This document shows, one piece after another, positions 2,038 through 34,637 of a stretch of DNA of 64,000 nucleotides. The first letter of the stretch is position 1. Each line of letters opens with the position of its first letter. Source of the DNA: a virus; IMG/VR virus record IMGVR_UViG_3300033273_000658, positions 62,001 to 126,000 of that record. One strand, written 5' to 3'. The position numbers were made by a program, and so were the translations under genes. Below the pieces are notes generated by a model. It was not told the DNA's origin. It ran no database searches and was given only the letters and a program-made list of their open reading frames with translations.

Positions 2038-3036
2038 ATGTTCAACCCCAATCATAAATTAATACAAAAAATAAAAGAGAAAGGAGGGTTTATTAACTCT
2101 CATGCCCATTTTGATCGGGCTTATACCGTGACTGAAGATAATATGGAAAAGGTGGTTAATTACCACCTTTTTGATAAATGGCAGTTCGTTGATAAGTTCA
2201 AGAAGAATGCCGAAGTCTCAATTTATATTCACAACATGATGGCAGCAATAAATCAACAAATCAAGTATGGAGTTGTTGGTGCTTTGACATTTGTTGACAT
2301 TGATAGTGTATGTGGTTTTAAAGCAGTAGAAGCAGCTCAGATAGTAAAAAAAGAAGCGAAAGCCAAAGGTTTTGAGCTTAAAATTTGTTCCCAAGCGTTG
2401 AAAGGTGTCTTGGCACCTAAAGAAAATAAATTACTTAAAAAAGCCTTAGATTTGGGGTATTTGGATGCTATTGGTGGTCTTCCAAGAGCAGATGAAGGAA
2501 AAGCACAAGCACACTTAGATCAAATTCTTTTTTTAGGCAAAGAATATGGAAAGAGAGTTCATGTACACGTTGATCAACTTAATGATTCTCTAGAAAAAGA
2601 AACCGAAATGCTTGCTTTGAGAACAATGCATTGGGGCATGGAAGGTAGAGTGACCGCTGTTCACGGTATTTCTATTGCAGCACATCCAAAAGAATACAGA
2701 GAGCGTGTTTATGGTTTGGCTCGTGATGCGGCCCTTTCTTTTGTCTCATGCCCAACAGCTTGGATTGACTCTCGCAGAAAAGAGTGGTTAACTCCAACAC
2801 ATAACTCCATCACACCTGTTGAAGAAATGATAAAACATGGCCTGACAGTTGCTATTGGCTCAGATAACATCCAAGATGTTTATAAACCATTCTCAGATGG
2901 AAACATGTACACAGAGCTTAAATTTTTGCTTGAATGTTTGCATTTGTACGACATTGATACCCTTGTTGACATCGCAACCAAAAACGGGAGACTAGTTATT
3001 GGTATGGAGGATAATAATGAAGGAGCCAAAATTTAA
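2038..3036 (+). CDS. Amidohydrolase, cytosine-deaminase-like
   Basis: This 332-residue protein has the metal-dependent TIM-barrel amidohydrolase signature. H22-x-H24 lies in SHAHFDRAYT, followed by HVHVDQLND (about residue 174), AVHGIS (about 209) and IGSDNIQDVYKPFSDGNM (about 274). The last segment resembles the CodA motif with its metal-binding Asp and substrate loop. CodA-type enzymes deaminate cytosine or related cyclic amidines, so a pyrimidine-salvage role beside DnaE and dUTPase is plausible. The exact substrate cannot be read. The start has a GAGGA ribosome-binding site, two bases after the upstream stop. Confidence 0.75.
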   Translation: MFNPNHKLIQKIKEKGGFINSHAHFDRAYTVTEDNMEKVVNYHLFDKWQFVDKFKKNAEVSIYIHNMMAAINQQIKYGVVGALTFVDIDSVCGFKAVEAAQIVKKEAKAKGFELKICSQALKGVLAPKENKLLKKALDLGYLDAIGGLPRADEGKAQAHLDQILFLGKEYGKRVHVHVDQLNDSLEKETEMLALRTMHWGMEGRVTAVHGISIAAHPKEYRERVYGLARDAALSFVSCPTAWIDSRRKEWLTPTHNSITPVEEMIKHGLTVAIGSDNIQDVYKPFSDGNMYTELKFLLECLHLYDIDTLVDIATKNGRLVIGMEDNNEGAKI

Positions 3037-3280
3037 AGTTGGAGACCTTGTATTCTATCAAGCATCTGAAATAAATAAGTATGCTAATGGCGAGAGACAG
3101 ATGGGAATAGTACTTAAAGTTACCCCGGAAGTTTCACCACTGTTTGAGGATCTACCTGATGCCCATATGTGGGCGTATGAGTTTAAAGTTAAATGGATTG
3201 AAACAGGATACACTTCAACGCTTCACGGATTTAATTTAAAAAAAATTGAAATTCCACTTGACAAAGAAGAAGAAACATGA
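3017..3280 (+). CDS. Small KxGDLV-family protein
   Basis: The ATG at 3017 is preceded by GGAGG with a 6-base spacer and overlaps the amidohydrolase 3' end. The product starts KFKVGDLVFYQ and continues with MGIVLKV and EFKVKWIE. This is the pattern K-x-G-D-L-V ... G-I-V ... V-x-W that recurs in about 35 small proteins here (see 21058-25589). The pattern suggests a small SH3-like beta barrel resembling YodC-type proteins. Function is unknown. Confidence 0.75.
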   Translation: MKEPKFKVGDLVFYQASEINKYANGERQMGIVLKVTPEVSPLFEDLPDAHMWAYEFKVKWIETGYTSTLHGFNLKKIEIPLDKEEET

Positions 3281-18308: not shown

Positions 18309-18572
18309 ATGAAAAAATACATAGTTTATGGAAGATCAAGCTGTCCTTATTGTATTAAGGTAGTGAACAAGTTATTGAGAGGTGGTAAGACATTTTATGT
18401 TGAACTGCACGATAGCACACCAGAAAAATTAGAAGAGGTTAAGAAAAGATTTAACCACCCAACAATTCCTGTTGTTACTTTTATAGACGACACAGAGATT
18501 CTTATCGGTGGTTGCGACGATACGATTGACCATCTTAAAAAAGAGAAGTCGAATGACGCTAGTGAGACATAA
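18309..18572 (+). CDS. Glutaredoxin
   Basis: The redox motif CPYC is at residues 12-15 (VYGRSSCPYC). The cis-proline segment TIPVVTFIDD and the glutathione-binding GGCDDT follow, all at glutaredoxin positions. 87 residues. It probably supplies electrons to ribonucleotide reductase (host or elsewhere in the phage). ACGGAGG precedes the start. Confidence 0.9.
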   Translation: MKKYIVYGRSSCPYCIKVVNKLLRGGKTFYVELHDSTPEKLEEVKKRFNHPTIPVVTFIDDTEILIGGCDDTIDHLKKEKSNDASET

Positions 18573-18765
18573 GCAACAAAAGTTCTTTGAGATTCTAGGT
18601 TTTGGAATTGTATTAGAAGACCACGGATACAAAGTCTTAGTAAGGTGGATTAATCCAAAGTCTCATAAACATACTCAACACATAATGACAAAGAACGCAC
18701 TACTCTTTCTTGACCCAAACGAGAAAGATTGTATTAAAGAACCGGAGATAATATGGAAAAATTAG
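18553..18765 (+). CDS. Small KxGDLV-related protein (GFGIV type)
   Basis: ATG 18553 lies inside the glutaredoxin 3' end. FFEILGFGIVLEDHGYKVLVRW and NALLFLDPNEK match the proteins at 24263 and 27130 (GFGIV/GVGIV, V-x-W, F-L-D), a subfamily without the first GDLV strand. Confidence 0.65.
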   Translation: MTLVRHKQQKFFEILGFGIVLEDHGYKVLVRWINPKSHKHTQHIMTKNALLFLDPNEKDCIKEPEIIWKN

Positions 18766-20592: not shown

Positions 20593-20982
20593 AAGTTACA
20601 TAAAATTTTAACAAACTTCATAAAACATGTCAAACTTTTTATGTAACTTTCTTAAAATTGTCTCTTGCAAGAATCATGCCAAAAATGTTTTACATAACTC
20701 AGACACTGAAATCGTGGCTGCAACTACCTTTAAGGTTGTTTTTGGATCATTGCAAGAACCATGCCAAACTTTTTTTACATAACTTTGAACCATTTTAAGC
20801 AAGTTACATAAAATTTTAACAAACTTCATAAAATGACTTGCAAGAATCGTGCCAATTTTTATTTACATAACTCAGGCATCGAAAACAGCTCTACGAGCTT
20901 CCAAAGGCCAGATCGCTTAACTTTACTATGAAGTTACATAAAATTTTAACAAACTTCATAAACTTTAACAAACTTCATAAAA
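20593..20982 (+). repeat. AAGTTACAT...CTTCATAAA direct repeats
   Basis: Three almost identical 32-33 bp direct repeats at 20593-20625, 20801-20833 and 20931-20962, with an extra CTTTAACAAACTTCATAAA at 20963-20982. They alternate with the sigma-54-like units. A related fragment occurs near 42237. Confidence 0.85.
20664..20873 (-). promoter_or_regulatory. Sigma-54-like elements, copies 1-3
   Basis: Copies at 20665-20700, 20750-20784 and 20838-20873. On the - strand each reads TTGGCA(C/T)G-N4-TTGCAA, with GG and GC ten bases apart as in -24/-12 promoters, preceded by AGTTATGTAAA. They point left, antisense to the upstream + strand genes. Confidence 0.7.
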
Positions 20983-21057: not shown

Positions 21058-21216
21058 ATGAAAGTTGGTGACTTGGTAAAGAATAAATACAACAACAAAG
21101 TTGGGATAATAATCTCACATAGTGGACGGCCACACCGTATACTTGGTGTAATGTACAGTGTGTGGATAGATGGACTTGATGTGCTATTACACGAATCAGA
21201 CTTGGAGGTATTATGA
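21058..21216 (+). CDS. Small KxGDLV-family protein (array member 1)
   Basis: Preceded by GGAGACAACATG. MKVGDLVKNKYNNKVGIII ... YSVWIDGLDV ... ESDLEVL, 52 residues. It shows the full family plan: opening GDLV strand, G-I-I strand, V-W-x-D-G turn and terminal L-E-V. Its last codons (TTG GAG GTA) supply the ribosome-binding site of the next gene, which starts in the ATGA overlap. Confidence 0.75.
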   Translation: MKVGDLVKNKYNNKVGIIISHSGRPHRILGVMYSVWIDGLDVLLHESDLEVL

Positions 21217-21368
21217 TAGGTAGACTTGTGCGTTGCAAATATACAAATGAAATAGGAATAGTGTTGCGTAGGGAAATAACACGCAGAGGAAACTTTCGCT
21301 ACCATGTGTTTATTGGTGGCCATACAGAAAGTTTTCTTCCACATTTCTTGGAGGTGATAGATGAATAA
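21213..21368 (+). CDS. Small KxGDLV-family protein (array member 2)
   Basis: 51 residues: MIGRLVRCKYTNEIGIVLRR ... YHVFIGGHTESFLPHFLEVIDE. The G-R-L-V variant of the opening strand. Coupled to both neighbours. Confidence 0.75.
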   Translation: MIGRLVRCKYTNEIGIVLRREITRRGNFRYHVFIGGHTESFLPHFLEVIDE

Positions 21369-21531
21369 AGGTGACTTGGTACGGATAAGACATAACGAAC
21401 ATCAAGGGCTATTCATCCTCATGGAAAAATGTTCGGCTGGTAGCCAGTTCGTGAGACTATATTCTTTGAAATACAACCGCGTATGTTTTGATATGATACG
21501 CTCATTAGAGGTGATAAATGCAGAAAGGTGA
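21361..21531 (+). CDS. Small KxGDLV-family protein (array member 3)
   Basis: 56 residues: MNKGDLVRIRHNEHQGLFIL ... FVRLYSLKYNRVCF ... RSLEVINAER. Starts eight bases before the upstream stop. The middle strand is G-L-F-I rather than G-I-V. Confidence 0.75.
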   Translation: MNKGDLVRIRHNEHQGLFILMEKCSAGSQFVRLYSLKYNRVCFDMIRSLEVINAER

Positions 21532-21667
21532 TTTAGTTAGATGTATATACACTGATGAACTATTGGTCATAACTTCGGAAGAAGTTGACGGCTATTTTGA
21601 TGTGTATGCAGTTGGAAATGGAAACATGTGGCTTATGCCCAAAGAACATTTAGAGGTGATAAAATGA
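21518..21667 (+). CDS. Small KxGDLV-family protein (array member 4)
   Basis: 49 residues: MQKGDLVRCIYTDELLVITS ... FDVYAVGNGNMWLMPKEHLEVIK. The ribosome-binding site GAGGTGAT is inside the preceding gene's L-E-V-I codons. Confidence 0.75.
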   Translation: MQKGDLVRCIYTDELLVITSEEVDGYFDVYAVGNGNMWLMPKEHLEVIK

Positions 21668-21849
21668 AAGTAGGTGATTTAAGAGTATTTAAGCCTTGTA
21701 GTTTCTATGCAAACAACATGTTTGTTGTCACACAAGTAGACGATATGGACTGCTCAATAACAATAAGAATAATAAAGACAGGAGAAGTGGAATGTTGGGA
21801 TCGAATAATACTTCTTCACGACAGTAAATCCGTATCGGTCAAAAAATAA
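21664..21849 (+). CDS. Small KxGDLV-family protein (array member 5)
   Basis: Start at the ATGA overlap (21664). MKVGDLRVFKPCSFYANNMFVVTQ ... ITIRIIKTGEVECWDRIILL, 61 residues. Ends the first array operon; a promoter cassette follows. Confidence 0.75.
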   Translation: MKVGDLRVFKPCSFYANNMFVVTQVDDMDCSITIRIIKTGEVECWDRIILLHDSKSVSVKK

Positions 21850-21858
21850 ACTTTTTTC

Positions 21859-21887
21859 TTGACAAAATAATTGCAACACATTAAGCT
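21859..21887 (+). promoter_or_regulatory. Cassette promoter (TTTTTTCTTGACA class)
   Basis: TTTTTTC-TTGACA (21859-21864), 17 bases, TAAGCT (21882-21887) with TATAAT directly downstream. First of about 12 near-identical cassettes to 37.3 kb, followed by the conserved GGAGACAA leader before the ATG. Confidence 0.75.
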
Positions 21888-21916
21888 ATAATTGCCAATC
21901 AAAACATGGAGACAAA

Positions 21917-22660
21917 ATGAACATAGAAAAAACAAAAGAGATTCTGCTAGGAAGAATAAACAAACTGACAGAAGAAGAAAGAGAGTGGATGTACGAAAAC
22001 AATAGAGCATGGTATAACAAATACCTTTTTGATAGTCCGTACCAAAAAGAAGAATACTCCAACTTACAATGGGAAGCTATGTGGCTATGGTCATCCTTTG
22101 GCCAAGACTACCTTCGCAATAAGTCTTTGGCAAAGAAATTTCTATCTTCGGAGAAGAAGATGAATCAAGTCATGGATATGATGCAAGACCGCAAGAAGTG
22201 GTATAATACTCGTGTCGATGAAATAAAGCAGCTACATGCGACTGGTAAGCTCACACAAGAGATTATGGCTTTCTTCATAAGCATGTTTCGCAAAGAAAAC
22301 TTCAATGTCTTTGAGAGCTATGTTAAAGACCCAATCTTTGACACTGGTGCAATTGTGCAGTTTCGCTCCAACATTGGTGTAGACGCAGTTCTTCAAGAAC
22401 ATAAGTATAGTGGTGGCACACAGTATTACGGAGCGAATCATAGTACAATGCGAGAACTTAAGCAAAAGACCATGATGGTGCTGGGTGAAAGTCCACCGTT
22501 GGGCGGCAAGATTTATGCTAGTGCCTATTCTCATAAAGAGAAACAAGGTGGTTCACGCTTGTATCGTGTTCTTCCTATCGGAGACACAAAAGTGTATATT
22601 GTTGTGGAGAAGTTCCTTAAGAAGTGTAGAACAAAGGCAGTGAAAGATGCAAAGAAGTGA
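21917..22660 (+). CDS. Hypothetical protein, 247 residues
   Basis: Preceded by the conserved TGGAGACAAA leader. Highly charged helical N-terminal half, rich in Trp (EWMYENNRAWYNKYL, QWEAMWLWSSFGQDYL), then a beta-rich C-terminal half (GGKIYASAYSHKEKQGGS, TKVYIVVEKFLKK). No motif recognised. It is the largest unknown among the small array genes. Confidence 0.75.
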   Translation: MNIEKTKEILLGRINKLTEEEREWMYENNRAWYNKYLFDSPYQKEEYSNLQWEAMWLWSSFGQDYLRNKSLAKKFLSSEKKMNQVMDMMQDRKKWYNTRVDEIKQLHATGKLTQEIMAFFISMFRKENFNVFESYVKDPIFDTGAIVQFRSNIGVDAVLQEHKYSGGTQYYGANHSTMRELKQKTMMVLGESPPLGGKIYASAYSHKEKQGGSRLYRVLPIGDTKVYIVVEKFLKKCRTKAVKDAKK

Positions 22661-22841
22661 TTTCAAGAAAGGCGATCTGTTCAGATACAATAAAGGTATG
22701 TCTATCCATGATGACGTTCATGGGCTTATAGGCATTGTGCTTGCTCCAATCAATCAGTTTGGACAATACAAAGTGCAAGTAGCGCACAAAACATTGTGGG
22801 TTCCTTTTTGTTCCTTGGAGGTGTTAGATGAAGAAAGGTGA
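22647..22841 (+). CDS. Small KxGDLV-family protein
   Basis: 64 residues: MQRSDFKKGDLFRYNKGMS ... LIGIVLAPINQFGQYKVQVAHKTLWVPFCSLEVLDEER. The start lies inside the upstream 3' end. Confidence 0.75.
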   Translation: MQRSDFKKGDLFRYNKGMSIHDDVHGLIGIVLAPINQFGQYKVQVAHKTLWVPFCSLEVLDEER

Positions 22842-22992
22842 TGTGGTAATACCAGTCAGTAAAGATTTAGATAAGACACCTATGATCTACATGGGAATAG
22901 GTTTGTGGACTGGGTGGATACGCGTGTATTGTCCAGCAGATGGACAGATAATACAGGTTAGAAAAACATTCGTACAAAAGGTGGAAGTATGA
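22828..22992 (+). CDS. Small KxGDLV-family protein
   Basis: 54 residues: MKKGDVVIPVSKDLDKTPMI ... WIRVYCPADGQIIQVRKTFVQKVEV. Middle strand GIGLW replaces GIV. Ribosome-binding site GAGGTGTT from the previous gene's L-E-V codons. Confidence 0.7.
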   Translation: MKKGDVVIPVSKDLDKTPMIYMGIGLWTGWIRVYCPADGQIIQVRKTFVQKVEV

Positions 22993-23156
22993 AAGTAGGT
23001 GATCTGGTACAGATGAAAGACACACGCTACCACAAAGAGATAGGTGTGGTCATAAAAACTTTTTTCCATGGCGATTGGCGAATAGAGGTTCATTGGGCTG
23101 ATGGTCGTGTGTTGTGGGAATCAAAGCTGGACTTAATACCTGTTGAAAAAACTTAG
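22989..23156 (+). CDS. Small KxGDLV-family protein
   Basis: 55 residues: MKVGDLVQMKDTRYHKEIGVVIK ... WRIEVHWADGRVLWESKLDLIPVEKT, a very typical member with the V-H-W-A-D-G turn. Last gene before the 23166 promoter. Confidence 0.75.
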   Translation: MKVGDLVQMKDTRYHKEIGVVIKTFFHGDWRIEVHWADGRVLWESKLDLIPVEKT

Positions 23157-23165
23157 AATTTTTTC

Positions 23166-23194
23166 TTGACAAGATTTGCTCAATCAGATAAGGT
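23166..23194 (+). promoter_or_regulatory. Cassette promoter
   Basis: TTGACA (23166-23171), 17 bases, TAAGGT (23189-23194) then TATAAATA. Spacer differs from the other cassettes. Confidence 0.7.
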
Positions 23195-23224
23195 ATAAAT
23201 ATAACATCAAAACATGGAGGCAAC

Positions 23225-23578
23225 ATGGCTTACATCAAACCAAAAATGAATGTGTTCTTCGCCAATGGTGGCAAGGCAATAACGGCAGTCATAGACAAGA
23301 TTGCATTTCGCAAGTACATGACAAAACCATACAAAGATCCAAAGACAGGTGAAACCAAACGTAGACAGAAGTCTATGCCGTTCGCAGTGTGTCGTGTGAT
23401 TCTATCTCTTGATCCATCGGTGAATGTGAATGAGACATTCCTTATCGCTGGTTATCAGCTTGAAAATGTAGTTATCAAGAATGAGAAGATGCTCACATTC
23501 AAAAGCGACTACGTTGCAGAGTATGCAAAAGACTATGGTAACGAATGGGTTAGGAGAATAATCAATGAAGATAGGTGA
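23225..23578 (+). CDS. Hypothetical protein, 117 residues
   Basis: TGGAGGCAAC leader. A basic first half (RKYMTKPYKDPKTGETKRRQK) follows a strand (MNVFFANGGKAITAVIDK). An OB- or barrel-like nucleic-acid binder is possible, but no family is recognised. Confidence 0.7.
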   Translation: MAYIKPKMNVFFANGGKAITAVIDKIAFRKYMTKPYKDPKTGETKRRQKSMPFAVCRVILSLDPSVNVNETFLIAGYQLENVVIKNEKMLTFKSDYVAEYAKDYGNEWVRRIINEDR

Positions 23579-23741
23579 TTTAGTAAAATGTATAGAAACA
23601 GACTACGGAATAGGTATAATCACAATGAAAAGACCTTTTGGTGGTTTTATAGTGTGTTTTCCAAACTCAAAGTTAAAACATAGCGACAAGTGTATTGGTT
23701 TATCAAGAGGAAACTTGGAGGTGATCAATGAAAAAAGGTAG
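23565..23741 (+). CDS. Small KxGDLV-family protein
   Basis: 58 residues: MKIGDLVKCIETDYGIGIIT ... GFIVCFPNSKLKHS ... LSRGNLEVINEKR. Starts 14 bases before the upstream stop. Confidence 0.75.
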   Translation: MKIGDLVKCIETDYGIGIITMKRPFGGFIVCFPNSKLKHSDKCIGLSRGNLEVINEKR

Positions 23742-23895
23742 TTTAGTGAGAATAAAACATTCAGCAGATATGAAACTCATAGGCACATTCGGTATTGTTT
23801 TGGGAGATTTGCAACATGGTCATATCATGATAAAGCGTTTTGTGGATGGTCGTAGAGATACCTATCATCAATCTAGATTGGAGCTGATAGCATGA
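23728..23895 (+). CDS. Small KxGDLV-family protein
   Basis: 55 residues: MKKGSLVRIKHSADMKLIGTFGIVLG ... IMIKRFVDGRRDTYHQSRLELIA. G-S-L-V variant. Confidence 0.75.
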   Translation: MKKGSLVRIKHSADMKLIGTFGIVLGDLQHGHIMIKRFVDGRRDTYHQSRLELIA

Positions 23896-24077
23896 AGATA
23901 GGTGATTTAGTTAGGGTAAACAGTGTTTTCTCTTGGGAACATCAAAAATACTTAGGCAAGATAGGTGTATTGAGGCGCAAAGCAGTAGGTACGGATAGTG
24001 TTTGGCTTGTGTACATAGATGGAAAAACATTATTATTAAGAGATGATAGATTAGAGGTGATAAATGAAAGTAGGTGA
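23892..24077 (+). CDS. Small KxGDLV-family protein
   Basis: 61 residues: MKIGDLVRVNSVFSWEHQKY then GKIGVLRRK ... WLVYIDGKTLLLRDDRLEVINESR. Coupled by an ATGA overlap. Confidence 0.75.
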   Translation: MKIGDLVRVNSVFSWEHQKYLGKIGVLRRKAVGTDSVWLVYIDGKTLLLRDDRLEVINESR

Positions 24078-24288
24078 TTTAGTAAAGGTGTCCAACAAAG
24101 GGTTCACAGCGATAGGGTTCATCAAAAATATTATGAAAAGCCAGATGGGTGAATTTTTCATGGTACATTACCTTACCACCAATGGAGTCCCAAACTTTCG
24201 TGGATACACCAATGGTGGGCTGTGGTCAAAGAAGTATCTGCAATTATTAAAGGAGGTGGAAGATGAAAAAGATATTAGCAAGACATAG
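24064..24288 (+). CDS. Small KxGDLV-family protein
   Basis: 74 residues: MKVGDLVKVSNKGFTAIGFIKN ... FFMVHYLTTNG ... KKYLQLLKEVEDE. Closest to the member at 27457 (KVTHKGNRTIGYIKKF). Confidence 0.75.
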   Translation: MKVGDLVKVSNKGFTAIGFIKNIMKSQMGEFFMVHYLTTNGVPNFRGYTNGGLWSKKYLQLLKEVEDEKDISKT

Positions 24289-24451
24289 AGACAAGGAAGT
24301 TTTCAATAAGATCGGCTTTGGAATAGTCACTGAGGATCTTGACGAGACAAAGTGCAAAGTGAAATGGCTGAAAAGCCAGTATGAAACTCTACAACTGAAA
24401 AATTACATCTTTTTGCTTGACGAACAGGCAGAGAACGGCTATATTGAATAG
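24263..24451 (+). CDS. Small GFGIV-subfamily protein
   Basis: 62 residues: MKKILARHRDKEVFNKIGFGIVTED ... CKVKWLKSQYETLQLKNYIFLLDEQ. Resembles 18553. AAGGAGG ribosome-binding site within the upstream gene. Confidence 0.7.
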   Translation: MKKILARHRDKEVFNKIGFGIVTEDLDETKCKVKWLKSQYETLQLKNYIFLLDEQAENGYIE

Positions 24452-24468
24452 ACACAACAGGAGACAAC

Positions 24469-24624
24469 ATGTTAGATACAATAGAGAAATGTTATTATGT
24501 GAGCAGTGATAGACTGCATGAGAGTAAACCAATGACTATGTTTCAAGCTTTACGGTTTGCAGATAGTTTAGAGAGACAAGGACACAAGAACGTGTTCTTT
24601 TACAAGGGGCAGTTAGCGATATGA
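24469..24624 (+). CDS. Hypothetical protein, 51 residues
   Basis: Preceded by AGGAGACAACATG. MLDTIEKCYYVSSDRLHESK then TMFQALRFADSLERQGHKNV. Not a KxGDLV member; one helix and two strands. It breaks the array. Confidence 0.6.
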   Translation: MLDTIEKCYYVSSDRLHESKPMTMFQALRFADSLERQGHKNVFFYKGQLAI

Positions 24625-24800
24625 AGATAGGTGACTTGGTAAAACTGGAATACAAAGGCGTAGATCTTGATGAGAAAGATAGATTGAAGATTGGTATTGT
24701 GGTCAACAATACCATCACAACTTTACAACTGGCCAAGGTTCTTTGGAGTAATGGCGATCAAACATGGTGTTTATGCGAGCAGTTAGAGGTGATAGCATGA
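24621..24800 (+). CDS. Small KxGDLV-family protein
   Basis: 59 residues: MKIGDLVKLEYKGVDLDEKD then LKIGIVVNN ... AKVLWSNGDQTWCLCEQLEVIA. Ends with the common E-Q-L-E-V-I-A. Confidence 0.75.
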   Translation: MKIGDLVKLEYKGVDLDEKDRLKIGIVVNNTITTLQLAKVLWSNGDQTWCLCEQLEVIA

Positions 24801-24976
24801 AAATAAAAGTAGGAAGTTTAGTACAGATACAAAACTTTGCAAAGTACAGTGGAATGATTGGGATTGTCATATACGTTTGTAGACGAGCAGGTTTTGTCGA
24901 TAGTTACGCAGTAAAGATCCCGAACACCACATACGAGTTAGGTGTGGCGAGAGAACAACTCAAGGCGTTAGCATGA
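24797..24976 (+). CDS. Small KxGDLV-family protein
   Basis: Start chosen at the ATGA overlap (24797). 59 residues: MKIKVGSLVQIQNFAKYSGMIGIVIYV ... YAVKIPNTTYELGVAREQLKALA. Confidence 0.75.
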   Translation: MKIKVGSLVQIQNFAKYSGMIGIVIYVCRRAGFVDSYAVKIPNTTYELGVAREQLKALA

Positions 24977-25128
24977 AAGTAGGTGATTTGGTTAAACACA
25001 TGGGGCATGGTCGCATTGGTGTTATTCTTAGAGATCTAGTTCCCAATGCTAGGGTTAAAAGGTATCTTGTTCATTGGGGTGACTATCAGTCATCACAAGT
25101 AGTATGGGCTTTGGAGGTGATAGCATGA
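24973..25128 (+). CDS. Small KxGDLV-family protein
   Basis: 51 residues: MKVGDLVKHMGHGRIGVILR ... YLVHWGDYQSSQVVWALEVIA. Contains V-H-W-G-D, the most regular turn of the family. Confidence 0.75.
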   Translation: MKVGDLVKHMGHGRIGVILRDLVPNARVKRYLVHWGDYQSSQVVWALEVIA

Positions 25129-25304
25129 AGAAAGGTGATTTAGTAACGGAGAAGTGGCGCATGTGGCGAAACATAGGTATCGTCAAGAGAGTAGGCAAAG
25201 ACGGATATACAAAGGTTAAATGGATCTTGAAAGCAGATCCAGTAGCTGACGATCAGTTTACCAGTGTGTTCGTTGTAATAGGAGAGATCAATGAAAGTAG
25301 GTGA
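25125..25304 (+). CDS. Small KxGDLV-family protein
   Basis: 59 residues: MKKGDLVTEKWRMWRNIGIV ... YTKVKWILKADPVADDQFTS ... IGEINESR. Start at 25125 after GGAGGTGAT. Confidence 0.75.
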   Translation: MKKGDLVTEKWRMWRNIGIVKRVGKDGYTKVKWILKADPVADDQFTSVFVVIGEINESR

Positions 25305-25446
25305 TTTGGCAGAATATTATTTACGTCCAAAAAGCTGGGGCATTATTGTAGGGATAGATACCTTTGAGTATGAGATGTTTTGGATGGATGGAAGCCGTGG
25401 ATGGATCTCAAAACGATCAATGGTCAAGAAAAGAGGTGATCAATGA
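25291..25446 (+). CDS. Small KxGDLV-family protein, tandem duplicate A
   Basis: 51 residues: MKVGDLAEYYLRPKSWGIIVG then IDTFEYEMFWMDGSRGWISK. The segment D-T-F-E-Y-E-x-F-W-M-D-G is shared with the next gene, so the pair is a recent duplication. Confidence 0.78.
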   Translation: MKVGDLAEYYLRPKSWGIIVGIDTFEYEMFWMDGSRGWISKRSMVKKRGDQ

Positions 25447-25589
25447 AAGTAGGTGATTTAGCAGAACACCACATCAACTCTTGGTGTTGGGGTATTATTG
25501 TGGCGATGGATACCTTTGAGTATGAGGTGTTTTGGATGGACGGAGAACGCTCTTGGGTAAGAAAAGAAATCATGGTCAAAAAATTATAG
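25443..25589 (+). CDS. Small KxGDLV-family protein, tandem duplicate B
   Basis: 48 residues: MKVGDLAEHHINSWCWGIIVA then MDTFEYEVFWMDGERSWVRK, a near copy of its upstream neighbour. Last of this array operon. Confidence 0.78.
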   Translation: MKVGDLAEHHINSWCWGIIVAMDTFEYEVFWMDGERSWVRKEIMVKKL

Positions 25590-25597
25590 CTTTTTTC

Positions 25598-25626
25598 TTG
25601 ACAAAATAATTCCAATCCTATAAGGT
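25598..25626 (+). promoter_or_regulatory. Cassette promoter of uvsE
   Basis: TTTTTTCTTGACA (TTGACA 25598-25603), 17 bases, TAAGGT (25621-25626) followed by ATAAACATAACA. Confidence 0.75.
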
Positions 25627-25655
25627 ATAAACATAACATCAAAACAGGAGACGAC

Positions 25656-26576
25656 ATGAAACTAGGTTACGCATGTATCAACAAAGGACTATCTGAACAG
25701 TCCATCAAAAACCGTATCACAACCAACCGTACATTTCGCAAGGCTACCTTTGAAGAGAAAGGTTTACCTCATGCGTCTGCTATCTTCTTACAGAACAGTA
25801 AAGACTTGCTTAAGATCCTCCAATGGAACGAGCAACACAACATCAAGTTCTTTCGCTTGTCCTCGCAGATTGTATCGTGGGCTACGGAGTATCAGCTCAC
25901 TGACTTGCCAGACTACGATCAGATTGAAGAAGTTCTTTTTGAGTGTGGTCTATTCATCGAAGAGCATGGTATGCGTGTCACATCACATCCCGATCACTTT
26001 GTCAAACTTGCGTCACCCAATGAGGATGTTGTTCGCAATTCTATTCGTGACTTGGAGATTCATGGTGAGATCTTTGATCTATTGTGCCTACCTCGTACCC
26101 ACTATGCCAAACTGAACATTCATGTTGGCGCGTCCTATGGTGACAAACCCAAGGCTATTGACAACTTTTGTCGTAACGTAGATAGACTATCCGATGCAGT
26201 ACGCTCTCGTTTGACCGTAGAGAATGATGATCGTGCCTCCTTGTACTCTACCCTAGACCTCATGGAAGTTTACAAGCGTGTCGGTACTCCCATCGTACAT
26301 GACCTACACCACCATGGGTTCTGCACTGGTGGTCTATCCAACCCCGATGCTCTTACACTTGCAGTGTCTACATGGGGCGATACTACCCCCGTGGTACACT
26401 ACTCCCAATCCCGTGCCATAGAACACAATGACACGTCCATCAAGGCACATGCACACTCAGACTCATACTGGACACCAGTGGATACATACGGACATGATGT
26501 GGATGTGATGCTTGAATGCAAGCACAAAGAGCTAGGTTTATTCAAGATGCGAGAACTATTAGGAAAAACTATTTAA
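25656..26576 (+). CDS. uvsE: UV DNA damage endonuclease (UvdE/UvsE)
   Basis: A 306-residue TIM-barrel protein with the UVDE family motifs: LGYACINKGL at the N-terminus, FFRLSSQIVSW, TSHPDHFVKL, KLNIHVGASYGDK, LTVENDDRAS, IVHDLHHHGF, VHYSQSR, AHSDSYW and DVMLECKHKE. These carry the His, Glu and Asp ligands of the metal cluster. It nicks DNA 5' of UV photoproducts. Light protection is useful for a phage of surface waters. GGAGACGAC leader and own promoter. Confidence 0.92.
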   Translation: MKLGYACINKGLSEQSIKNRITTNRTFRKATFEEKGLPHASAIFLQNSKDLLKILQWNEQHNIKFFRLSSQIVSWATEYQLTDLPDYDQIEEVLFECGLFIEEHGMRVTSHPDHFVKLASPNEDVVRNSIRDLEIHGEIFDLLCLPRTHYAKLNIHVGASYGDKPKAIDNFCRNVDRLSDAVRSRLTVENDDRASLYSTLDLMEVYKRVGTPIVHDLHHHGFCTGGLSNPDALTLAVSTWGDTTPVVHYSQSRAIEHNDTSIKAHAHSDSYWTPVDTYGHDVDVMLECKHKELGLFKMRELLGKTI

Positions 26577-26590
26577 CAAAGGAGACAACC

Positions 26591-26839
26591 ATGAAAACAG
26601 AAAGAGAACAAGCAATACAAAACCTTATGAAAATAATGCCTGACCATACTGACAGTGCGTTTATAGTTAAACAAGAGGGTGATGATAGTGGCTCGTACCT
26701 ATGTGTGTATGTAGAGCGCACAGAGACAGGTGCAGAGGTATGCAAGACCATCCCAACACCGTTTGAGGGATGGAGAGTGGTGCATGTGTGGTGTCCAGAT
26801 GGGTTCATCAAGCACATACTGGAGAGAACGAGAGAATGA
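26591..26839 (+). CDS. Hypothetical protein, 82 residues
   Basis: Start at ATG 26591 after AAAGGAGACAACC. Helix, then strands SYLCVYVERTETGAEVCKTI and WRVVHVWCPDGF. Not recognised; not a KxGDLV member. Confidence 0.65.
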   Translation: MKTEREQAIQNLMKIMPDHTDSAFIVKQEGDDSGSYLCVYVERTETGAEVCKTIPTPFEGWRVVHVWCPDGFIKHILERTRE

Positions 26840-27045
26840 AAATAGGCGATCTTGTTGTGTTATCGGCCAAAGGTGCGAAGTTAAAGCACAACCACAATTA
26901 TTATCGTGGCTTTGGAATTATTTTAGAGGTTTACCCAGCGAAAGGATACTATGACTTCGGTATACAGTGGTTTTGCGAGGGTAGATCCACACACAACAAG
27001 AGAGTTTGGTTTAAGAGATACGAGATAAAGAAATTAAAACCTTGA
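26836..27045 (+). CDS. Small KxGDLV-family protein
   Basis: 69 residues: MKIGDLVVLSAKGAKLKHNHNY then GFGIILEVYPAKGYYDFGIQWFCEG ... KRYEIKKLKP. Links the GDLV and GFGI subfamilies in one protein. Confidence 0.75.
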   Translation: MKIGDLVVLSAKGAKLKHNHNYYRGFGIILEVYPAKGYYDFGIQWFCEGRSTHNKRVWFKRYEIKKLKP

Positions 27046-27070
27046 TTATGAAAAAACTTCAATTTTTTTC

Positions 27071-27099
27071 TTGACAAAATAATTGTAACCCTATAAGCT
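27071..27099 (+). promoter_or_regulatory. Cassette promoter
   Basis: TTGACA (27071-27076), 17 bases, TAAGCT (27094-27099) then ATAAACACC. Confidence 0.75.
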
Positions 27100-27129
27100 A
27101 TAAACACCACACCGAACAACGGAGAAAAA

Positions 27130-27327
27130 ATGATTGGAAAACTAGTAAAACGAAAAGAAAAAAAACACCACAAGTTTTGGGGAGTAGGTATAGTTTTAGA
27201 TTACAGATCCACAGGAAGATTTTACCCCAGTACAGAACTGAAAGTGCATTGGGTTTCCTGTGAAATCGGTTCACAGATTTCTAGCATTGACATTGGGCTT
27301 GTGGAGTTTTTAGATGAAAGCAGGTAG
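27130..27327 (+). CDS. Small KxGDLV-family protein (GVGIV type)
   Basis: CGGAG leader. 65 residues: MIGKLVKRKEKKHHKFWGVGIVLDY ... ELKVHWVSCEIG ... GLVEFLDESR. Confidence 0.75.
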   Translation: MIGKLVKRKEKKHHKFWGVGIVLDYRSTGRFYPSTELKVHWVSCEIGSQISSIDIGLVEFLDESR

Positions 27328-27460
27328 TGTAGTAGAAAATACTTTTGGAGACATTGGTATCGTCATTCGACAGATAGGTGTCGCAGATAGGTGGCTCATT
27401 CAATGGGCTAGTGGAGAAGTTTACGGTATCAATGGATACCAACTAGAGGTGATAGCATGA
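27314..27460 (+). CDS. Small KxGDLV-family protein
   Basis: 48 residues: MKAGSVVENTFGDIGIVIRQ ... WLIQWASGEVYGINGYQLEVIA. Shortest class, with the L-I-Q-W-x-S-G turn. Confidence 0.75.
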   Translation: MKAGSVVENTFGDIGIVIRQIGVADRWLIQWASGEVYGINGYQLEVIA

Positions 27461-27651
27461 AGATAGGTGATTTAGTAAAAGTGACACACAAAGGTAATCG
27501 TACGATTGGATACATCAAAAAGTTTGGACGTTATGGGAAGAGTTATGTTATGGTCGTGTACTTGACTGGCTCTCATGTAGGCAAAGAGCGGTTCTTCTCA
27601 GAAAAAGAAGTCCTACCAATCAATCAACTCATTGGAGAGGAAAGAGCATGA
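27457..27651 (+). CDS. Small KxGDLV-family protein
   Basis: 64 residues: MKIGDLVKVTHKGNRTIGYIKKF ... YVMVVYLTGSHVGKERFFSEKEVLPI. Confidence 0.75.
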   Translation: MKIGDLVKVTHKGNRTIGYIKKFGRYGKSYVMVVYLTGSHVGKERFFSEKEVLPINQLIGEERA

Positions 27652-27827
27652 AGATAGGTGATTTAGTTATAGTAAAAGATGTTTTGGGCTACAACACGTA
27701 CATGCAGAACCTTGCCGGTCACATTGGTGTAATTGTCAAGGAAAGGTACAATGAGCATTGGGTGAAAGTCCACATACTAGGAAAAACAAAAAGGATCAGC
27801 ATATATGATTTGAAGGTGATAAAGTGA
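27648..27827 (+). CDS. Small KxGDLV-family protein
   Basis: 59 residues: MKIGDLVIVKDVLGYNTYMQ then HIGVIVKERYNEHWVKVHIL ... ISIYDLKVIK. Confidence 0.75.
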   Translation: MKIGDLVIVKDVLGYNTYMQNLAGHIGVIVKERYNEHWVKVHILGKTKRISIYDLKVIK

Positions 27828-28000
27828 AGATAGGAACACTATGCGAAGTGGTTGCAATAGCAAGTCATTTTCCATCACAGTTTGGTGATTTAGTGGTCAT
27901 AACAGGATACACACATGGTGTATACATCACTGGAACAAACTTGAAAACAGGCAAAACACATCATTACAACCCAACAGAACTCAAAGAGGTGAAACAATGA
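27824..28000 (+). CDS. Small KxGDLV-related protein
   Basis: GTG start in a GTGA overlap. 58 residues: MKIGTLCEVVAIASHFPSQFG then DLVVITGYTHGVYITGTNLK ... NPTELKEVKQ. The DLV strand is shifted, a divergent copy. Confidence 0.65.
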   Translation: MKIGTLCEVVAIASHFPSQFGDLVVITGYTHGVYITGTNLKTGKTHHYNPTELKEVKQ

Positions 28001-28296
28001 ACGTATACGAAGTTACAAAAACAAGACCATGGGATGGTAGAGAAACAATAAGTATTCACATGACACGAAAAGGTGCTTTGCAAGTGGCTTGCATAGAGGG
28101 TTTGGATGCACTTTTGGGCTGTTTTCATGAAGATGATGAGGATTTAGCATGGGCAGAAAAGAGTCTTGAAACACTTGAAAACCCAGATCATACGCTCAAA
28201 ATAAAAGAACTGGAAACTATGTTCGATAAATGCGAAGAACTTCTTTGGAGCATAGAAATGGAGGTAGAGGTGCATGAATACGCACTCAAACCATAA
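27997..28296 (+). CDS. Hypothetical helical protein, 99 residues
   Basis: GAGGTGAAACA precedes ATG. Mostly acidic helices (DALLGCFHEDDEDLAWAEKS, METMFDKCEELLWSIEMEVE-like). Not recognised. Confidence 0.65.
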   Translation: MNVYEVTKTRPWDGRETISIHMTRKGALQVACIEGLDALLGCFHEDDEDLAWAEKSLETLENPDHTLKIKELETMFDKCEELLWSIEMEVEVHEYALKP

Positions 28297-28319
28297 AAAA
28301 ATTATTTTCAACTTTTTTC

Positions 28320-28348
28320 TTGACAAAACAATTCCAACCCTATAAGGT
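28320..28348 (+). promoter_or_regulatory. Cassette promoter
   Basis: TTTTTTCTTGACA (TTGACA 28320-28325), 17 bases, TAAGGT (28343-28348). Confidence 0.75.
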
Positions 28349-28379
28349 ATAAAGACCAACCCAAACAAACGGAGACAAC

Positions 28380-29309
28380 ATGAACATTCATGAAAACAAG
28401 AACAGCTCAAACAGAAGTAAAGCAACATGTGGCTACTGCCGAGAAGAGGGGCACAACCAATACCAATGTCCACACGTCAAAGGTGATTGGGAGAACTTCC
28501 TATCAAGACTGGAAATTCCCAAAGACAAAGATGGTAACATCATCAGACGTGGCTATAATTACGCTGTATGGAGTTATAGTGGCAACTTCGATCCTCTCAC
28601 TATGGACATAGCCAATAATGCTCTTGCCTCATGGTTTCGTAACTGCAAGAAAGCATACCTCGTCCAGAAAGAACGTGGGTTCAATCTTGAACACAAAACC
28701 AAGCGCAAAGCAGTAAATAGAACATGTGGCTTTTGTGGTGGCAAAGATCATACAAGGCGCAACTGTACCAAGATGGAACAGTTTCTCAAAGACTGCTACA
28801 AAGCCAATGAGAACTGGCGAATGGCTGCCTACAAAGATCTTGTGTTGGATGGTGGCTTATCTGTTGGGGCTTGTATCAAGGTCTCTTATGAAACAGGCAA
28901 CTGGAGTAATAGAGAGACTAAAATGAGCACCGGTATCATCACCAAGATAAATTGGAACACTGTAAATGTGTTCTCCGGTATGAACAAACGTCACAACGAT
29001 GCTCATTCTCCGATAGAGGTTTCTGTACTGGTAGATGGTGAAACAAGACGACTTGATAATCTTGCTGACAAGTTCAACACTGTCGGAGAGAATGGTAGAA
29101 TACATTCCTTTTGGAATGGTGCCCCAGCATGTTCACTGCATACAGTTATCACCAACTCCCCTACTCCCCTACCCCAAGAGTGGATTACTTCCTACAAGGA
29201 ATCCTTTGGAACTCTTGTCAAGAAGAGAACTTATGAGCAACTACAAAACGGCTTGAAGTCCGATTGGCGACCTGCTAACCTTGTAGCTCACATTGACGCA
29301 TGGAAATAA
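28380..29309 (+). CDS. Double zinc-knuckle (CCHC) protein
   Basis: Two exact C-x2-C-x4-H-x4-C knuckles: CGYCREEGHNQYQC (about residues 17-30) and CGFCGGKDHTRRNC (about 116-129), the retroviral Gag-type fold that binds single-stranded nucleic acid. Between them is a helical region. After them, LSVGACIKVSYETGN ... STGIITKINWNTVNVF ... VSVLVDGETRR resembles the strand plan of the neighbouring KxGDLV proteins. An RNA- or ssDNA-binding role is likely. CGGAGACAAC leader. Confidence 0.85.
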   Translation: MNIHENKNSSNRSKATCGYCREEGHNQYQCPHVKGDWENFLSRLEIPKDKDGNIIRRGYNYAVWSYSGNFDPLTMDIANNALASWFRNCKKAYLVQKERGFNLEHKTKRKAVNRTCGFCGGKDHTRRNCTKMEQFLKDCYKANENWRMAAYKDLVLDGGLSVGACIKVSYETGNWSNRETKMSTGIITKINWNTVNVFSGMNKRHNDAHSPIEVSVLVDGETRRLDNLADKFNTVGENGRIHSFWNGAPACSLHTVITNSPTPLPQEWITSYKESFGTLVKKRTYEQLQNGLKSDWRPANLVAHIDAWK

Positions 29310-29310
29310 C

Positions 29311-29493
29311 ATGCGTTATTCTCCCCTACATACAGGTGATCTCATACACATGTATGGATTGGAGAGCATGATAGGTGTGGTTGTGCGTGAAAGGCGCGAG
29401 GGTGTGTATGATATACACATCTTCCAAGACAATCGCACATTCACATTCCCTAGGGGTATGCTAGAAAAACTTAAAACAACGGAGATAACATGA
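29311..29493 (+). CDS. Small KxGDLV-family protein
   Basis: 60 residues: MRYSPLHTGDLIHMYGLESMIGVVVRE ... YDIHIFQDNRTFTFPRGMLEKL. T-G-D-L-I variant. No strong ribosome-binding site (GGAAATAAC). Confidence 0.65.
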   Translation: MRYSPLHTGDLIHMYGLESMIGVVVRERREGVYDIHIFQDNRTFTFPRGMLEKLKTTEIT

Positions 29494-29744: not shown

Positions 29745-29770
29745 ACGGACAAAAAATTTCAACTTTTTTC

Positions 29771-29799
29771 TTGACAAAATAATTCCAATCCTATAAGCT
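29771..29799 (+). promoter_or_regulatory. Cassette promoter
   Basis: TTGACA (29771-29776), 17 bases, TAAGCT (29794-29799). Confidence 0.75.
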
Positions 29800-29830
29800 A
29801 TAAACACTAACCCAAACAAACGGAGTGACC

Positions 29831-30926: not shown

Positions 30927-31988
30927 ATGGCTATTGACTTCAAAACATTCTCTAACGTAATCAACCCTATCCTTAACGCAAAGTTCCCTGTCCTCGTTCG
31001 TGGTCGGCACGGTATCGGTAAATCTACCATCGTTTACCAAAAAGCCAAAGAACTCGGTCTGCCTGTCGTAGAGCGTAGAGCATCCCAAATGACTGAGGGG
31101 GACTTGCTTGGCTTGCCAAAGCAATCAGACAATGATGTAACTGAGTGGTGTCCACCAAAGTGGTTCAAGACTGCTTGTGATACCCCTGTTGTCCTCTTCC
31201 TTGATGAAGTAGACCGTGCAACACTTGAAGTCCGTCAAGGTATCTTTGAACTATGCGATAGCCGTAAGATTGCCGGTCGCAGTCTTCATCCCGACACCCT
31301 TATCTTTGCTTGTGTCAATGGCGGAGAACATGGTTCTCAATACCAAGTAGGTGAGATGGATCCCGCAGAACTTGACCGCTACACTGTCTTTGACGTAGAA
31401 CCTACGGTAGAAGATTGGCTTAACTGGGCAAAGGGTAATGTTGCCCAAGAAATCTGGGATTTCATCAATCAGAACCACAATCATCTTGAACACAATGATG
31501 ACTACGAGCCTAACAAGGTTTACCCATCAAGACGTTCTTGGGAACGACTATCCACGACTTTGTCTGGAATGGGCGATCAGATTGAGGGTTCATCTGTAAC
31601 CTACCATATCGCTTGCTCTTTCATTGGCTTTGAGGGTGCAGTGGCATTCAAAGACTTCCTTGACAAATACGATCGTCAAGTCACCATCGAAGATCTTCTA
31701 GATGATGGTAAGTTTGACAAGATCAAAGGTTGGAAAATCAACGATCACAATGCCATGGTCGAAAAGATGAAAGCAAAGAACATCTTTGCAGACCGTCTAT
31801 CCGACACACGTCTTGATAACCTTGCAAAGTACTTCTTGCAACTTCCATCCGAGATTGTCATGGTTCTATGGCAGTCCATGGCTCAGACCGATGAGTCTAC
31901 CTACAACATCGCTAAACTTTGGGCAATCGAAGTGGATGGTACATCTATTCAAGACTATGTTGTCGGTATCCTCAACGCAGGAAACTAA
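30927..31988 (+). CDS. MoxR-type AAA+ ATPase
   Basis: A 353-residue single AAA module. Walker A is GRHGIGKST (about residues 27-35), Walker B is VVLFLDEVDRA (about 90-100), with FACVNGGE as sensor I and PAELDRYTVFDVEP typical of MoxR/AAA_5 proteins. MoxR ATPases act as chaperones with VWA-domain partners, and one is encoded at 32826. AACGGAGGCC leader. Codon use is more C-rich than in the small genes. Confidence 0.9.
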   Translation: MAIDFKTFSNVINPILNAKFPVLVRGRHGIGKSTIVYQKAKELGLPVVERRASQMTEGDLLGLPKQSDNDVTEWCPPKWFKTACDTPVVLFLDEVDRATLEVRQGIFELCDSRKIAGRSLHPDTLIFACVNGGEHGSQYQVGEMDPAELDRYTVFDVEPTVEDWLNWAKGNVAQEIWDFINQNHNHLEHNDDYEPNKVYPSRRSWERLSTTLSGMGDQIEGSSVTYHIACSFIGFEGAVAFKDFLDKYDRQVTIEDLLDDGKFDKIKGWKINDHNAMVEKMKAKNIFADRLSDTRLDNLAKYFLQLPSEIVMVLWQSMAQTDESTYNIAKLWAIEVDGTSIQDYVVGILNAGN

Positions 31989-32004
31989 GCCACAAAGGCT
32001 TTGG

Positions 32005-32028
32005 CTCCTTGTGCCTTGAAACAAGGAG
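32005..32028 (+). other. Intergenic RNA hairpin
   Basis: CTCCTTGT (32005-32012) pairs perfectly with ACAAGGAG (32021-32028), 8-base loop, no T-run. It lies in the AAA-32057 spacer; perhaps a processing or stability element. Confidence 0.5.
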
Positions 32029-32056
32029 ACTATAATCCCTTTCTATGGAGATACCC

Positions 32057-32395
32057 ATGAGAATACACAAAGGTACATTCAAGATACGAGAACATGATGA
32101 TGGTGAACGAAAGTGGTCTTATTACGATGGATCGTATGGCAACGACTTCCCTTTCTATGTTCATCGTAAAGAGAACGAAAAGTGGTGGACTTTATCTCAC
32201 ATGTCTACTGGCTACATGATAAAGAAGAACCTATCACTGAAAGAGGCAAGGCGATTGTGCAAGGCTCTCAAAGAGTGGCCTTTGTTCCTAATGCCTACTG
32301 CTGAGACTTTGAACCATCAAAAGTCTTTACTACCAACCTACAAACAACAACTACTTAACAACATTGTACACAATGCAGGAGAAACCAATGAGTAA
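32057..32395 (+). CDS. Hypothetical protein, 112 residues
   Basis: ATG 32057 after GGAGATACCC. Beta-rich first half with many aromatic residues (KWSYYDGSYGNDFPFYVHRK), then a helix. Lies within the AAA/VWA operon. Confidence 0.65.
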   Translation: MRIHKGTFKIREHDDGERKWSYYDGSYGNDFPFYVHRKENEKWWTLSHMSTGYMIKKNLSLKEARRLCKALKEWPLFLMPTAETLNHQKSLLPTYKQQLLNNIVHNAGETNE

Positions 32396-32594
32396 TAACG
32401 AGATCAACATTACACTGAACATATCAGACGAACTACTATCCAAGCTAATCATGGCTATGCAACCACAAAGCAACTCCATGGGAATACCCTTGCAAGCTCT
32501 CATGGGTATGGCTATGCCACCACAAGCACTTCCCAAGGCAGAAAAGCCCAAGAAGAAAGCACCTATGGGTTTCAAAACAGGGAGCGCAGAATGA
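32388..32594 (+). CDS. Hypothetical protein, 68 residues
   Basis: ATG 32388 after GCAGGAG. Short helix (ITLNISDELLSKLIMAMQ), Met-rich middle and basic tail. Operon member between AAA and VWA genes. Confidence 0.6.
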   Translation: MSNNEINITLNISDELLSKLIMAMQPQSNSMGIPLQALMGMAMPPQALPKAEKPKKKAPMGFKTGSAE

Positions 32595-32833
32595 GCAGAC
32601 CAAAATTGCAGTATAGCAACATAACGTACTACGCAATACAAAGGCAAAAGCTGGAGTTTCCACCAGAACTTGAAGAGTTATCTGAACCTTTGGAAGTCAA
32701 GTCATTGGCTCAAAAGATAGAGGAAGCGCACACAAACCTAGATAGAATAGAATTTTCAAAAAAAAACTTGACAATTCCTATCGAACAGAATAATAGTAAA
32801 TTATCACCCCAACAAGGAGATTCCAATGAGTGA
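32591..32833 (+). CDS. Hypothetical protein, 80 residues
   Basis: ATGA overlap with the previous gene. Acidic centre (ELEELSEPLEVKSLAQKIEE). A possible internal promoter TTGACA-N17-TAATAG lies near its 3' end. Unknown. Confidence 0.55.
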   Translation: MSRPKLQYSNITYYAIQRQKLEFPPELEELSEPLEVKSLAQKIEEAHTNLDRIEFSKKNLTIPIEQNNSKLSPQQGDSNE

Positions 32834-34607: not shown

Positions 34608-34637
34608 CCTACTACCCTACTACCCCACCCCCAACCA
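34608..34637 (+). repeat. C-rich CTACTACCC spacer
   Basis: CCTACTACCCTACTACCCCA then CCCCCAACC between stop and next ribosome-binding site; same motif as at 20068 and 39815. Confidence 0.6.

What the first reader, a model, noticed from the sequence alone, without database searches (positions are those of the whole stretch)
21058..29493. Tandem array of about 25 hyper-divergent KxGDLV mini-proteins
Adjacent genes of 48-74 residues share M-K-x-G-D-L-V, then G-I-(V/I), then V-x-W-x-D-G and a terminal L-E-V-I, yet are otherwise very different. More members lie at 3017, 3304, 17750, 18553, 19855, 20386, 34073-34649 and 51902. The plan suggests a small SH3-like barrel. Such expansion and divergence is what one expects of proteins in an arms race with host targets (anti-defence or takeover factors).
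Basis: partly seen in the sequence, partly recalled or inferred. Interest (0 to 1): 0.8.

Follow-up and report, generated by a model that had tools for sequence, protein, structure and literature searches.

The report
Shuffled cassette array of mini SH3 proteins
An uncultured phage, and its wider group of relatives, carries a block of about 26 tiny genes that all appear to make variants of one small barrel-shaped protein; whole genes are swapped in and out at a built-in start/stop junction, which looks like an exchangeable kit of early proteins for acting on the host.

Summary
The array is real. Window 21058-29493 holds 26 small ORFs, all on the + strand; 22 of 26 match a profile built without them (E<0.01). 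One representative folds confidently as an SH3-like barrel (pLDDT 89.6). An iterated profile finds 780 members next to the same MoxR gene in related IMG/VR contigs, 777 of them on MoxR's strand, up to 36 per contig. Orthologues in a close relative are under purifying selection (pooled dN/dS 0.21), so the genes are used as proteins but do not diversify fast at codon level. Variation comes from gene replacement: only 8 within-contig pairs are >=50% identical, against 275 between contigs. The 'terminal LEVI' is largely the next gene's Shine-Dalgarno site (GGAGGTGAT), and K-x-G-D carries the previous gene's stop codon. This 14-nt overlap is the commonest junction (39% of members, 2% of other genes). 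Homology between cassettes falls to chance at it, whole cassettes are missing exactly at it, and cassette order differs between relatives. Similar promoters are almost confined to this module. I read it as a host-takeover (possibly counter-defence) effector kit on one fold, shuffled as cassettes. The anatomy is shown; the function is inferred. Members listed outside the array are mostly unconfirmed.

The parts
21058..21216 (+). family member
   Evidence: leave-one-out E 9e-7
21213..21368 (+). family member, -4 overlap with previous; 92% identical orthologue in L041
21361..21531 (+). family member, -8 overlap
   Evidence: leave-one-out E 2.6e-4
21518..21667 (+). family member, -14 overlap; no syntenic orthologue in L041
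   Evidence: leave-one-out E 0.0037
21664..21849 (+). divergent family member; last of its operon, no LEVI
   Evidence: leave-one-out E 0.32, core better than 97% of shuffles
22647..22841 (+). family member
   Evidence: leave-one-out E 0.0085
22828..22992 (+). divergent family member, -14 overlap
   Evidence: leave-one-out E 0.7; KxGD start and junction
22989..23156 (+). canonical family member; structure predicted; replaced by another cassette in L041
   Evidence: leave-one-out E 1.7e-10; pLDDT 89.6
23565..23741 (+). family member, -14 overlap; cassette absent in L041
   Evidence: leave-one-out E 5e-9
23728..23895 (+). family member, -14 overlap; cassette absent in L041
   Evidence: leave-one-out E 1.6e-7
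23892..24077 (+). family member, -4 overlap
   Evidence: leave-one-out E 7.6e-8
24064..24288 (+). family member, -14 overlap
   Evidence: leave-one-out E 1.9e-4
24263..24451 (+). family member without the KxGDLV start; related to 18553
   Evidence: leave-one-out E 0.099; core above all shuffles
24621..24800 (+). family member; different cassette at this place in L041
   Evidence: leave-one-out E 2.8e-7
24797..24976 (+). family member, -4 overlap
   Evidence: leave-one-out E 1.1e-6
24973..25128 (+). family member, -4 overlap; cassette absent in L041 with exact junctions
   Evidence: leave-one-out E 1.6e-8
25125..25304 (+). family member, -4 overlap; 98% identical orthologue in L041
   Evidence: leave-one-out E 3.2e-4
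25291..25446 (+). family member, -14 overlap; its end carries the Shine-Dalgarno site in another frame (KKRGDQ)
25443..25589 (+). family member, tandem duplicate of 25291 (66% identical)
26836..27045 (+). family member
   Evidence: leave-one-out E 3.9e-9
27130..27327 (+). family member; closest L041 homologue (60%) lies about 8 kb away, beyond the array
   Evidence: leave-one-out E 0.0064
27314..27460 (+). family member, -14 overlap
   Evidence: leave-one-out E 0.0034
27457..27651 (+). family member, -4 overlap
   Evidence: leave-one-out E 2.8e-6
27648..27827 (+). family member, -4 overlap; cassette absent in L041
   Evidence: leave-one-out E 1.1e-6
27824..28000 (+). divergent family member, GTG start, -4 overlap
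   Evidence: leave-one-out E 0.11
29311..29493 (+). family member
   Evidence: leave-one-out E 2.7e-4
3017..3280 (+). solitary family member outside the array
   Evidence: profile E 1.4e-7
18553..18765 (+). probable solitary relative of 24263
   Evidence: profile E 0.004
21508..21537 (+). example of the -14 junction: GAGGTGAT Shine-Dalgarno, start ATG, and stop TGA of the upstream ORF inside GGT-GAT
24054..24083 (+). second exact example of the -14 junction
21855..21894 (+). promoter-like repeat TTTCTTGACAAAATAATT...
23162..23201 (+). promoter-like repeat
25594..25633 (+). promoter-like repeat
27067..27106 (+). promoter-like repeat
28316..28355 (+). promoter-like repeat
29767..29806 (+). promoter-like repeat

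Best explanation
The array is an exchangeable repertoire of small binding proteins on one SH3-like barrel. Shown here: the genes lie in short operons, and the last codons of one gene supply the Shine-Dalgarno site of the next. The next gene's start (ATG AAA GTx GGT GA) supplies the stop codon of the previous one. The junction is therefore a shared block of roughly 25-30 bases that is position-independent: any cassette ending in it should be translated with correct coupling wherever it lands. Also shown: cassettes are lost and replaced whole at this junction, homology between cassettes of different phages ends at it, order changes between relatives, and homologues are shared mostly between phages rather than within one. 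Inferred: recombination (the phage has its own RecA-like gene) uses the junctions as its homology. Also inferred: the proteins are made early from the module's own promoters, and each uses its variable surface to bind a different host target (takeover of host machinery, or blocking of defence), so that swapping cassettes changes the target set.
For: Family and fold. Use as proteins: 777 of 780 members on MoxR's strand, pooled dN/dS 0.21 over orthologues. Junction: -14 overlap 257 against 32 for -4 between neighbouring members; 284/736 family genes against 23/1038 other genes; GAG 94% at the E of EVI before an overlap, background 48%. Cassette exchange: exact losses of 23565+23728, 24973 and 27648 in L041. 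DNA identity of 100 homologous cassette pairs falls from 0.84 to about 0.33 upstream of the start, and to about 0.35 just past the stop. 8 within-contig against 275 between-contig pairs >=50%, with scrambled order in L020/L046/L035. Own promoter set, 12 of 13 record-wide matches inside window 21.8-39.4 kb. RecA present, no tyrosine integrase, no reverse transcriptase. Binding scaffold: conserved positions are structural (G4, D5, L6, V7, G19, V34, W36) with most other positions near maximal entropy. Analogue: SPO1 host-takeover module, 26 mostly small early genes with strong promoters and ribosome sites (PMC6873191).
Against: No member has a known function, target or known anti-defence relative; PADLOC found nothing convincing. 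Early expression rests on promoter-like repeats with unusual spacing, not on transcripts. The junction as recombination substrate is inferred from breakpoints; a junction selected only for translation would also be conserved. Orthologues are conserved (purifying), which a strict arms race would not predict.
Confidence: 0.5

Rival explanations
1. All members do one job: they are KOW/Tudor-like barrels that bind nucleic acid, RNA polymerase or the ribosome, and many copies give dosage or transcript specificity.
For: Nearest solved folds include the UvrD C-terminal domain bound to the RNA polymerase lobe, Spt5 KOW domains and ribosomal proteins; profile hits to the uL24 and NusG KOW domains at E 0.007-0.1.
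Against: No conserved surface patch and no consistent charge; very low identity between members of one genome. The fold likeness is generic to small barrels, with no Foldseek hit below 1e-3.
Confidence: 0.18
2. The array is specifically a counter-defence locus: each protein inhibits one bacterial defence system, and gain and loss follow the defences of local hosts.
For: Fast whole-gene turnover between close relatives and a pool shared between phages are what variable host defences would select.
Against: No defence or anti-defence homology; orthologues under purifying selection; host unknown, so no matching of cassettes to defences is possible.
Confidence: 0.2
3. The cassettes act against other phages (superinfection exclusion or competition) rather than on the host.
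For: Repertoire diversity and exchange between related phages would also fit phage-phage competition.
Against: Nothing in the sequences points to membrane or envelope location; no direct evidence.
Confidence: 0.07
4. The array is a near-neutral by-product: recombination between repeated junctions multiplies and swaps small ORFs that do little.
For: Junction repeats and frequent gain and loss.
Against: dN/dS 0.04-0.49 for all scored orthologues with at least 55% identity; open frames on one strand in 777 members with the start/stop architecture kept; few recent duplicates.
Confidence: 0.04

Closest known systems
[quoted passage not shown]
   Same: A block of about 26 mostly small, tightly packed genes with their own promoters and strong ribosome sites (PMC6873191).
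   Different: SPO1 genes are not described as one fold or one family, and no cassette junction is described there; here one barrel fold is used throughout and function is untested.
PeSL (promoter early stem-loop) modular shuffling in T4-type phages
   Same: Short repeated DNA elements next to small early genes mediate swapping of genes between related phages (Arbiol 2010 and Comeau 2014, cited in PMC4503421; the originals were not held).
   Different: There the repeat is an intergenic promoter-terminator with a stem-loop. Here it lies inside the overlapping coding ends (Shine-Dalgarno, start, stop), has no significant stem-loop, and all cassettes share one fold.
Integron gene-cassette arrays
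   Same: Head-to-tail cassettes with conserved junctions, variable contents and a pool shared between genomes.
   Different: No tyrosine integrase in the record, no attC-like folded site, no recombination site outside the coding frame.
Diversity-generating retroelements
   Same: A source of hypervariable binding proteins.
   Different: No reverse transcriptase in the record; orthologues are conserved, so variation is not targeted mutation.
Small SH3-like barrel families (KOW, DUF2158, PWWP/Tudor-like, HspQ, YorP)
   Same: Same predicted fold class.
   Different: For the window members scanned no family reaches its curated cut-off; over 110 members the matches are scattered and weak.

Membership tests
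SH3-like small beta-barrel fold | five-stranded small barrel | tested here: met
   AF2 pLDDT 89.6, five strands; PDB matches are SH3-like barrels, TM about 0.6-0.75. Fold computed well for one member only; others by profile.
KOW / NusG / uL24 family | clear sequence match to the KOW model | tested here: not met
   3 of 110 members hit KOW, best E 0.002; PDB profile best KOW-protein E 0.007.
DUF2158 | match above the Pfam cut-off | tested here: inconclusive
   4 of 110 members, best E 0.0021; scores against the cut-off were not listed.
Host-takeover module (SPO1-like, functional class) | block of small packed genes with its own promoters and strong ribosome sites | tested here: met
   (by sequence only)
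Host-takeover module (SPO1-like, functional class) | early expression and effect on host growth | not testable with these tools
   no transcripts, host or expression data
PeSL shuffling element | intergenic promoter plus stem-loop terminator flanking swapped genes | tested here: not met
   junctions lie within overlapping ORFs; six junctions fold no better than shuffles
Integron cassette array | tyrosine integrase and attC sites | tested here: not met
   no PF00589 match in the record (the record may be a fragment); no folded site
Diversity-generating retroelement | reverse transcriptase and template repeat | tested here: not met
   no PF00078 match in the record (the record may be a fragment)
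Known defence-system proteins (PADLOC) | homology to catalogued proteins | tested here: not met
   no PADLOC match for the two members and the neighbours tested beyond a weak AAA hit

The most novel reading that the evidence does not exclude
A phage clade carries an integrase-free analogue of the integron. Single-fold effector genes are exchanged between phages through a coding junction that at once is ribosome site, start codon, stop codon of the previous gene and homology for recombination, so the host-target repertoire can be re-cut one gene at a time without breaking translation.
Probability: 0.35. Interest if true: 0.85.

Novelty: new variant of a known kind. Interest (0 to 1): 0.68.

Why it matters
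Phage early regions are full of unknown small genes. Here hundreds of them in one clade reduce to one fold with a recognisable junction, so they can be collected, folded and screened as a set. The junction also gives a testable mechanism for how phages swap small effector genes one at a time without breaking translation, and the members may be a source of natural binders of bacterial proteins on a very small scaffold.

Tried and rejected
1) Link between the array fold and the C-terminal half of the neighbouring zinc-knuckle protein (28380-29309): hhalign probability 4%, rejected. 2) The MIGTLW group (34073-34819) as members: profile E 2.6-95 and a model of pLDDT 62, not accepted. 3) Structured RNA at junctions: six fold no better than shuffles. 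4) Retroelement mutagenesis or integrase: no RT or tyrosine integrase in the record. 5) Relatives in named phages: tblastn of two members found none. 7) Host from MAG bins: WOR-3, Deltaproteobacteria, Flavobacteriales, Desulfobacteraceae, inconsistent. 8) Literature: no description of such an array found in the open library; subscription papers are not covered. 9) The charge spread of members is only what random composition gives, so charge says nothing for distinct targets.

Full report
What was checked. The window is bases 62001-126000 of a 141,005-base virus record. It encodes a GroEL-like chaperonin, a DnaE-type polymerase whose known phage relatives are all below 60% identity, and a tmRNA. 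The record appears to be an uncultured phage.

The array. Between 21058 and 29493 I count 26 family ORFs, all on the + strand, with larger or unrelated genes between some of them. Each member was scored against a profile built without it: 22 of 26 reach E<0.01. To rule out that the shared ends alone create the family, I cut 8 residues from the start and 10 from the end and built the profile from other phages. 19 of 26 cores then beat at least 97% of shuffled cores; seven do not, so for those the link rests on the ends, the place in the array and the full-length profile.

The motif explained. The 'LEVI' end is written GAG-GTG-AT and sits just before the next start codon: it is the Shine-Dalgarno site. 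The overlaps between neighbouring members in the window are mostly -4 or -14 bases, once -8. In the -14 form the downstream start ATG-AAA-GTx-GGT-GAT supplies the upstream stop TGA. In the window, the five members with no overlapping follower lack LEVI, and 25291 has the same DNA in another frame, ending KKRGDQ. Across relatives LEVI is present in 227 of 276 members followed by a -14 overlap, 39 of 107 followed by -4 and 55 of 126 otherwise. The share without an overlap suggests that the last strand of the fold also tends to this pattern, so the motif is largely but not only a ribosome site.

Relatives. The neighbouring MoxR-type ATPase (30927) found 71 related loci in IMG/VR. An iterated profile found 780 members there, 777 on MoxR's strand, up to 36 in one locus. 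All 20 whole records tested had members, 2 to 32 each. Between neighbouring members the -14 overlap occurs 257 times and -4 32 times. With a ribosome-site filter, 284 of 736 family genes but 23 of 1038 other genes have a -14 follower. Codon choice at the junction is far from background: GGT 312 of 312 in the -14 class, GTC 74% against 24%, GAG 94% against 48%.

Selection and turnover. L041 carries a MoxR 98% identical to the window's, and conserved stretches of the array region are mostly 80-90% identical in DNA. Family orthologues of >60% identity have pooled dN 0.092, dS 0.440, ratio 0.21; other genes 0.10. So the members are kept as proteins and are not under gene-wide diversifying selection, although about twice as relaxed as their neighbours. 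Eight members have no syntenic orthologue there (21058, 21518, 22989, 23565, 23728, 24621, 24973, 27648). The losses of 23565+23728, 24973 and 27648 are exact from junction to junction. The closest homologue of 27130 lies about 8 kb away.

Cassettes. Among 764 members only 8 pairs within a contig are at least 50% identical, against 275 between contigs; part of the latter comes from a few close contig pairs. The order of shared cassettes is scrambled in L020/L046, L035/L046 and L020/L035, while the closest pairs are collinear. In 100 homologous pairs whose upstream neighbours differ, DNA identity is about 0.33 upstream and rises to 0.84 at the start codon. In 96 pairs with different downstream neighbours it falls from about 0.68 to about 0.35 just past the stop. 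The unit of exchange is the single gene, bounded by the junction. The record encodes a RecA-like protein but no tyrosine integrase and no reverse transcriptase. Six junctions fold no better than shuffles.

Fold. With 110 sequences AlphaFold2 gives a five-stranded barrel, pLDDT 89.6, pTM 0.71. The nearest solved structures are SH3-like: YorP, the UvrD C-terminal domain bound to RNA polymerase, HspQ, PetP, Spt5 KOW and PWWP domains, with TM about 0.6-0.75 and no E-value below 0.001. Conserved positions are structural; most others are near maximal entropy, and no conserved polar set suggests an enzyme. I infer a binding scaffold.

Expression. A 40-base promoter-like repeat (TTTCTTGACAAAATAATTnCAAnCCTATAAG) was modelled from six copies in the module. 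It matches 13 places in the record; 12 are in window 21.8-39.4 kb on the + strand and one weak match lies elsewhere. Spacing to the second box is not the classical 17. This suggests a separately controlled, probably early, module; timing is not shown.

Interpretation and limits. The anatomy resembles a host-takeover module (SPO1) assembled by a shuffling process that resembles PeSL exchange in T4-type phages, but with the exchange site inside the coding junction and a single fold. I give 0.5 to the full statement, with the takeover or counter-defence role the weakest step. Only one member was folded well; the host is unknown; dN/dS rests on one pair of phages with dS high for some genes; and the literature search covered open papers only.

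Noticed in passing
window 28380-29309: A protein with two CCHC-like zinc knuckles (CGYCREEGHNQYQC, CGFCGGKDHTRRNC) and no Pfam match; iterated search gives 75 hits in the related loci.
   Followed up: partly
window 30927-34064: MoxR-type AAA ATPase followed, after small ORFs, by a metallopeptidase/VWA (DUF2201) protein; the ATPase is conserved beside the array in 71 IMG/VR loci.
   Followed up: partly
window 25656-26576: UV-damage endonuclease UvdE (E 3.5e-60) inside the array.
   Followed up: no
window 3498-3883: A phage-encoded tmRNA with tag ANNNNYFEVAQAA.
   Followed up: no
window 15565-17139: Phage GroEL-like chaperonin, about 45% identical to the nearest records.
   Followed up: no
window 20593-20975: Short direct repeats (AAGTTACATAAAATTTTAACAAACTTCATAAA and CTTGCAAGAATC-like) just upstream of the array, three copies each, with a further copy of the second near 35241.
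   Followed up: no
window 34073-34819: A second small tandem family (MIGTLW..., four ORFs) right after the VWA gene, not shown to belong to the barrel family.
   Followed up: partly
L203 (CP070664.1, 585894-606946): A 64% identical MoxR relative lies in a 2.8 Mb WOR-3 MAG chromosome; either a prophage or an assembly error.
   Followed up: no
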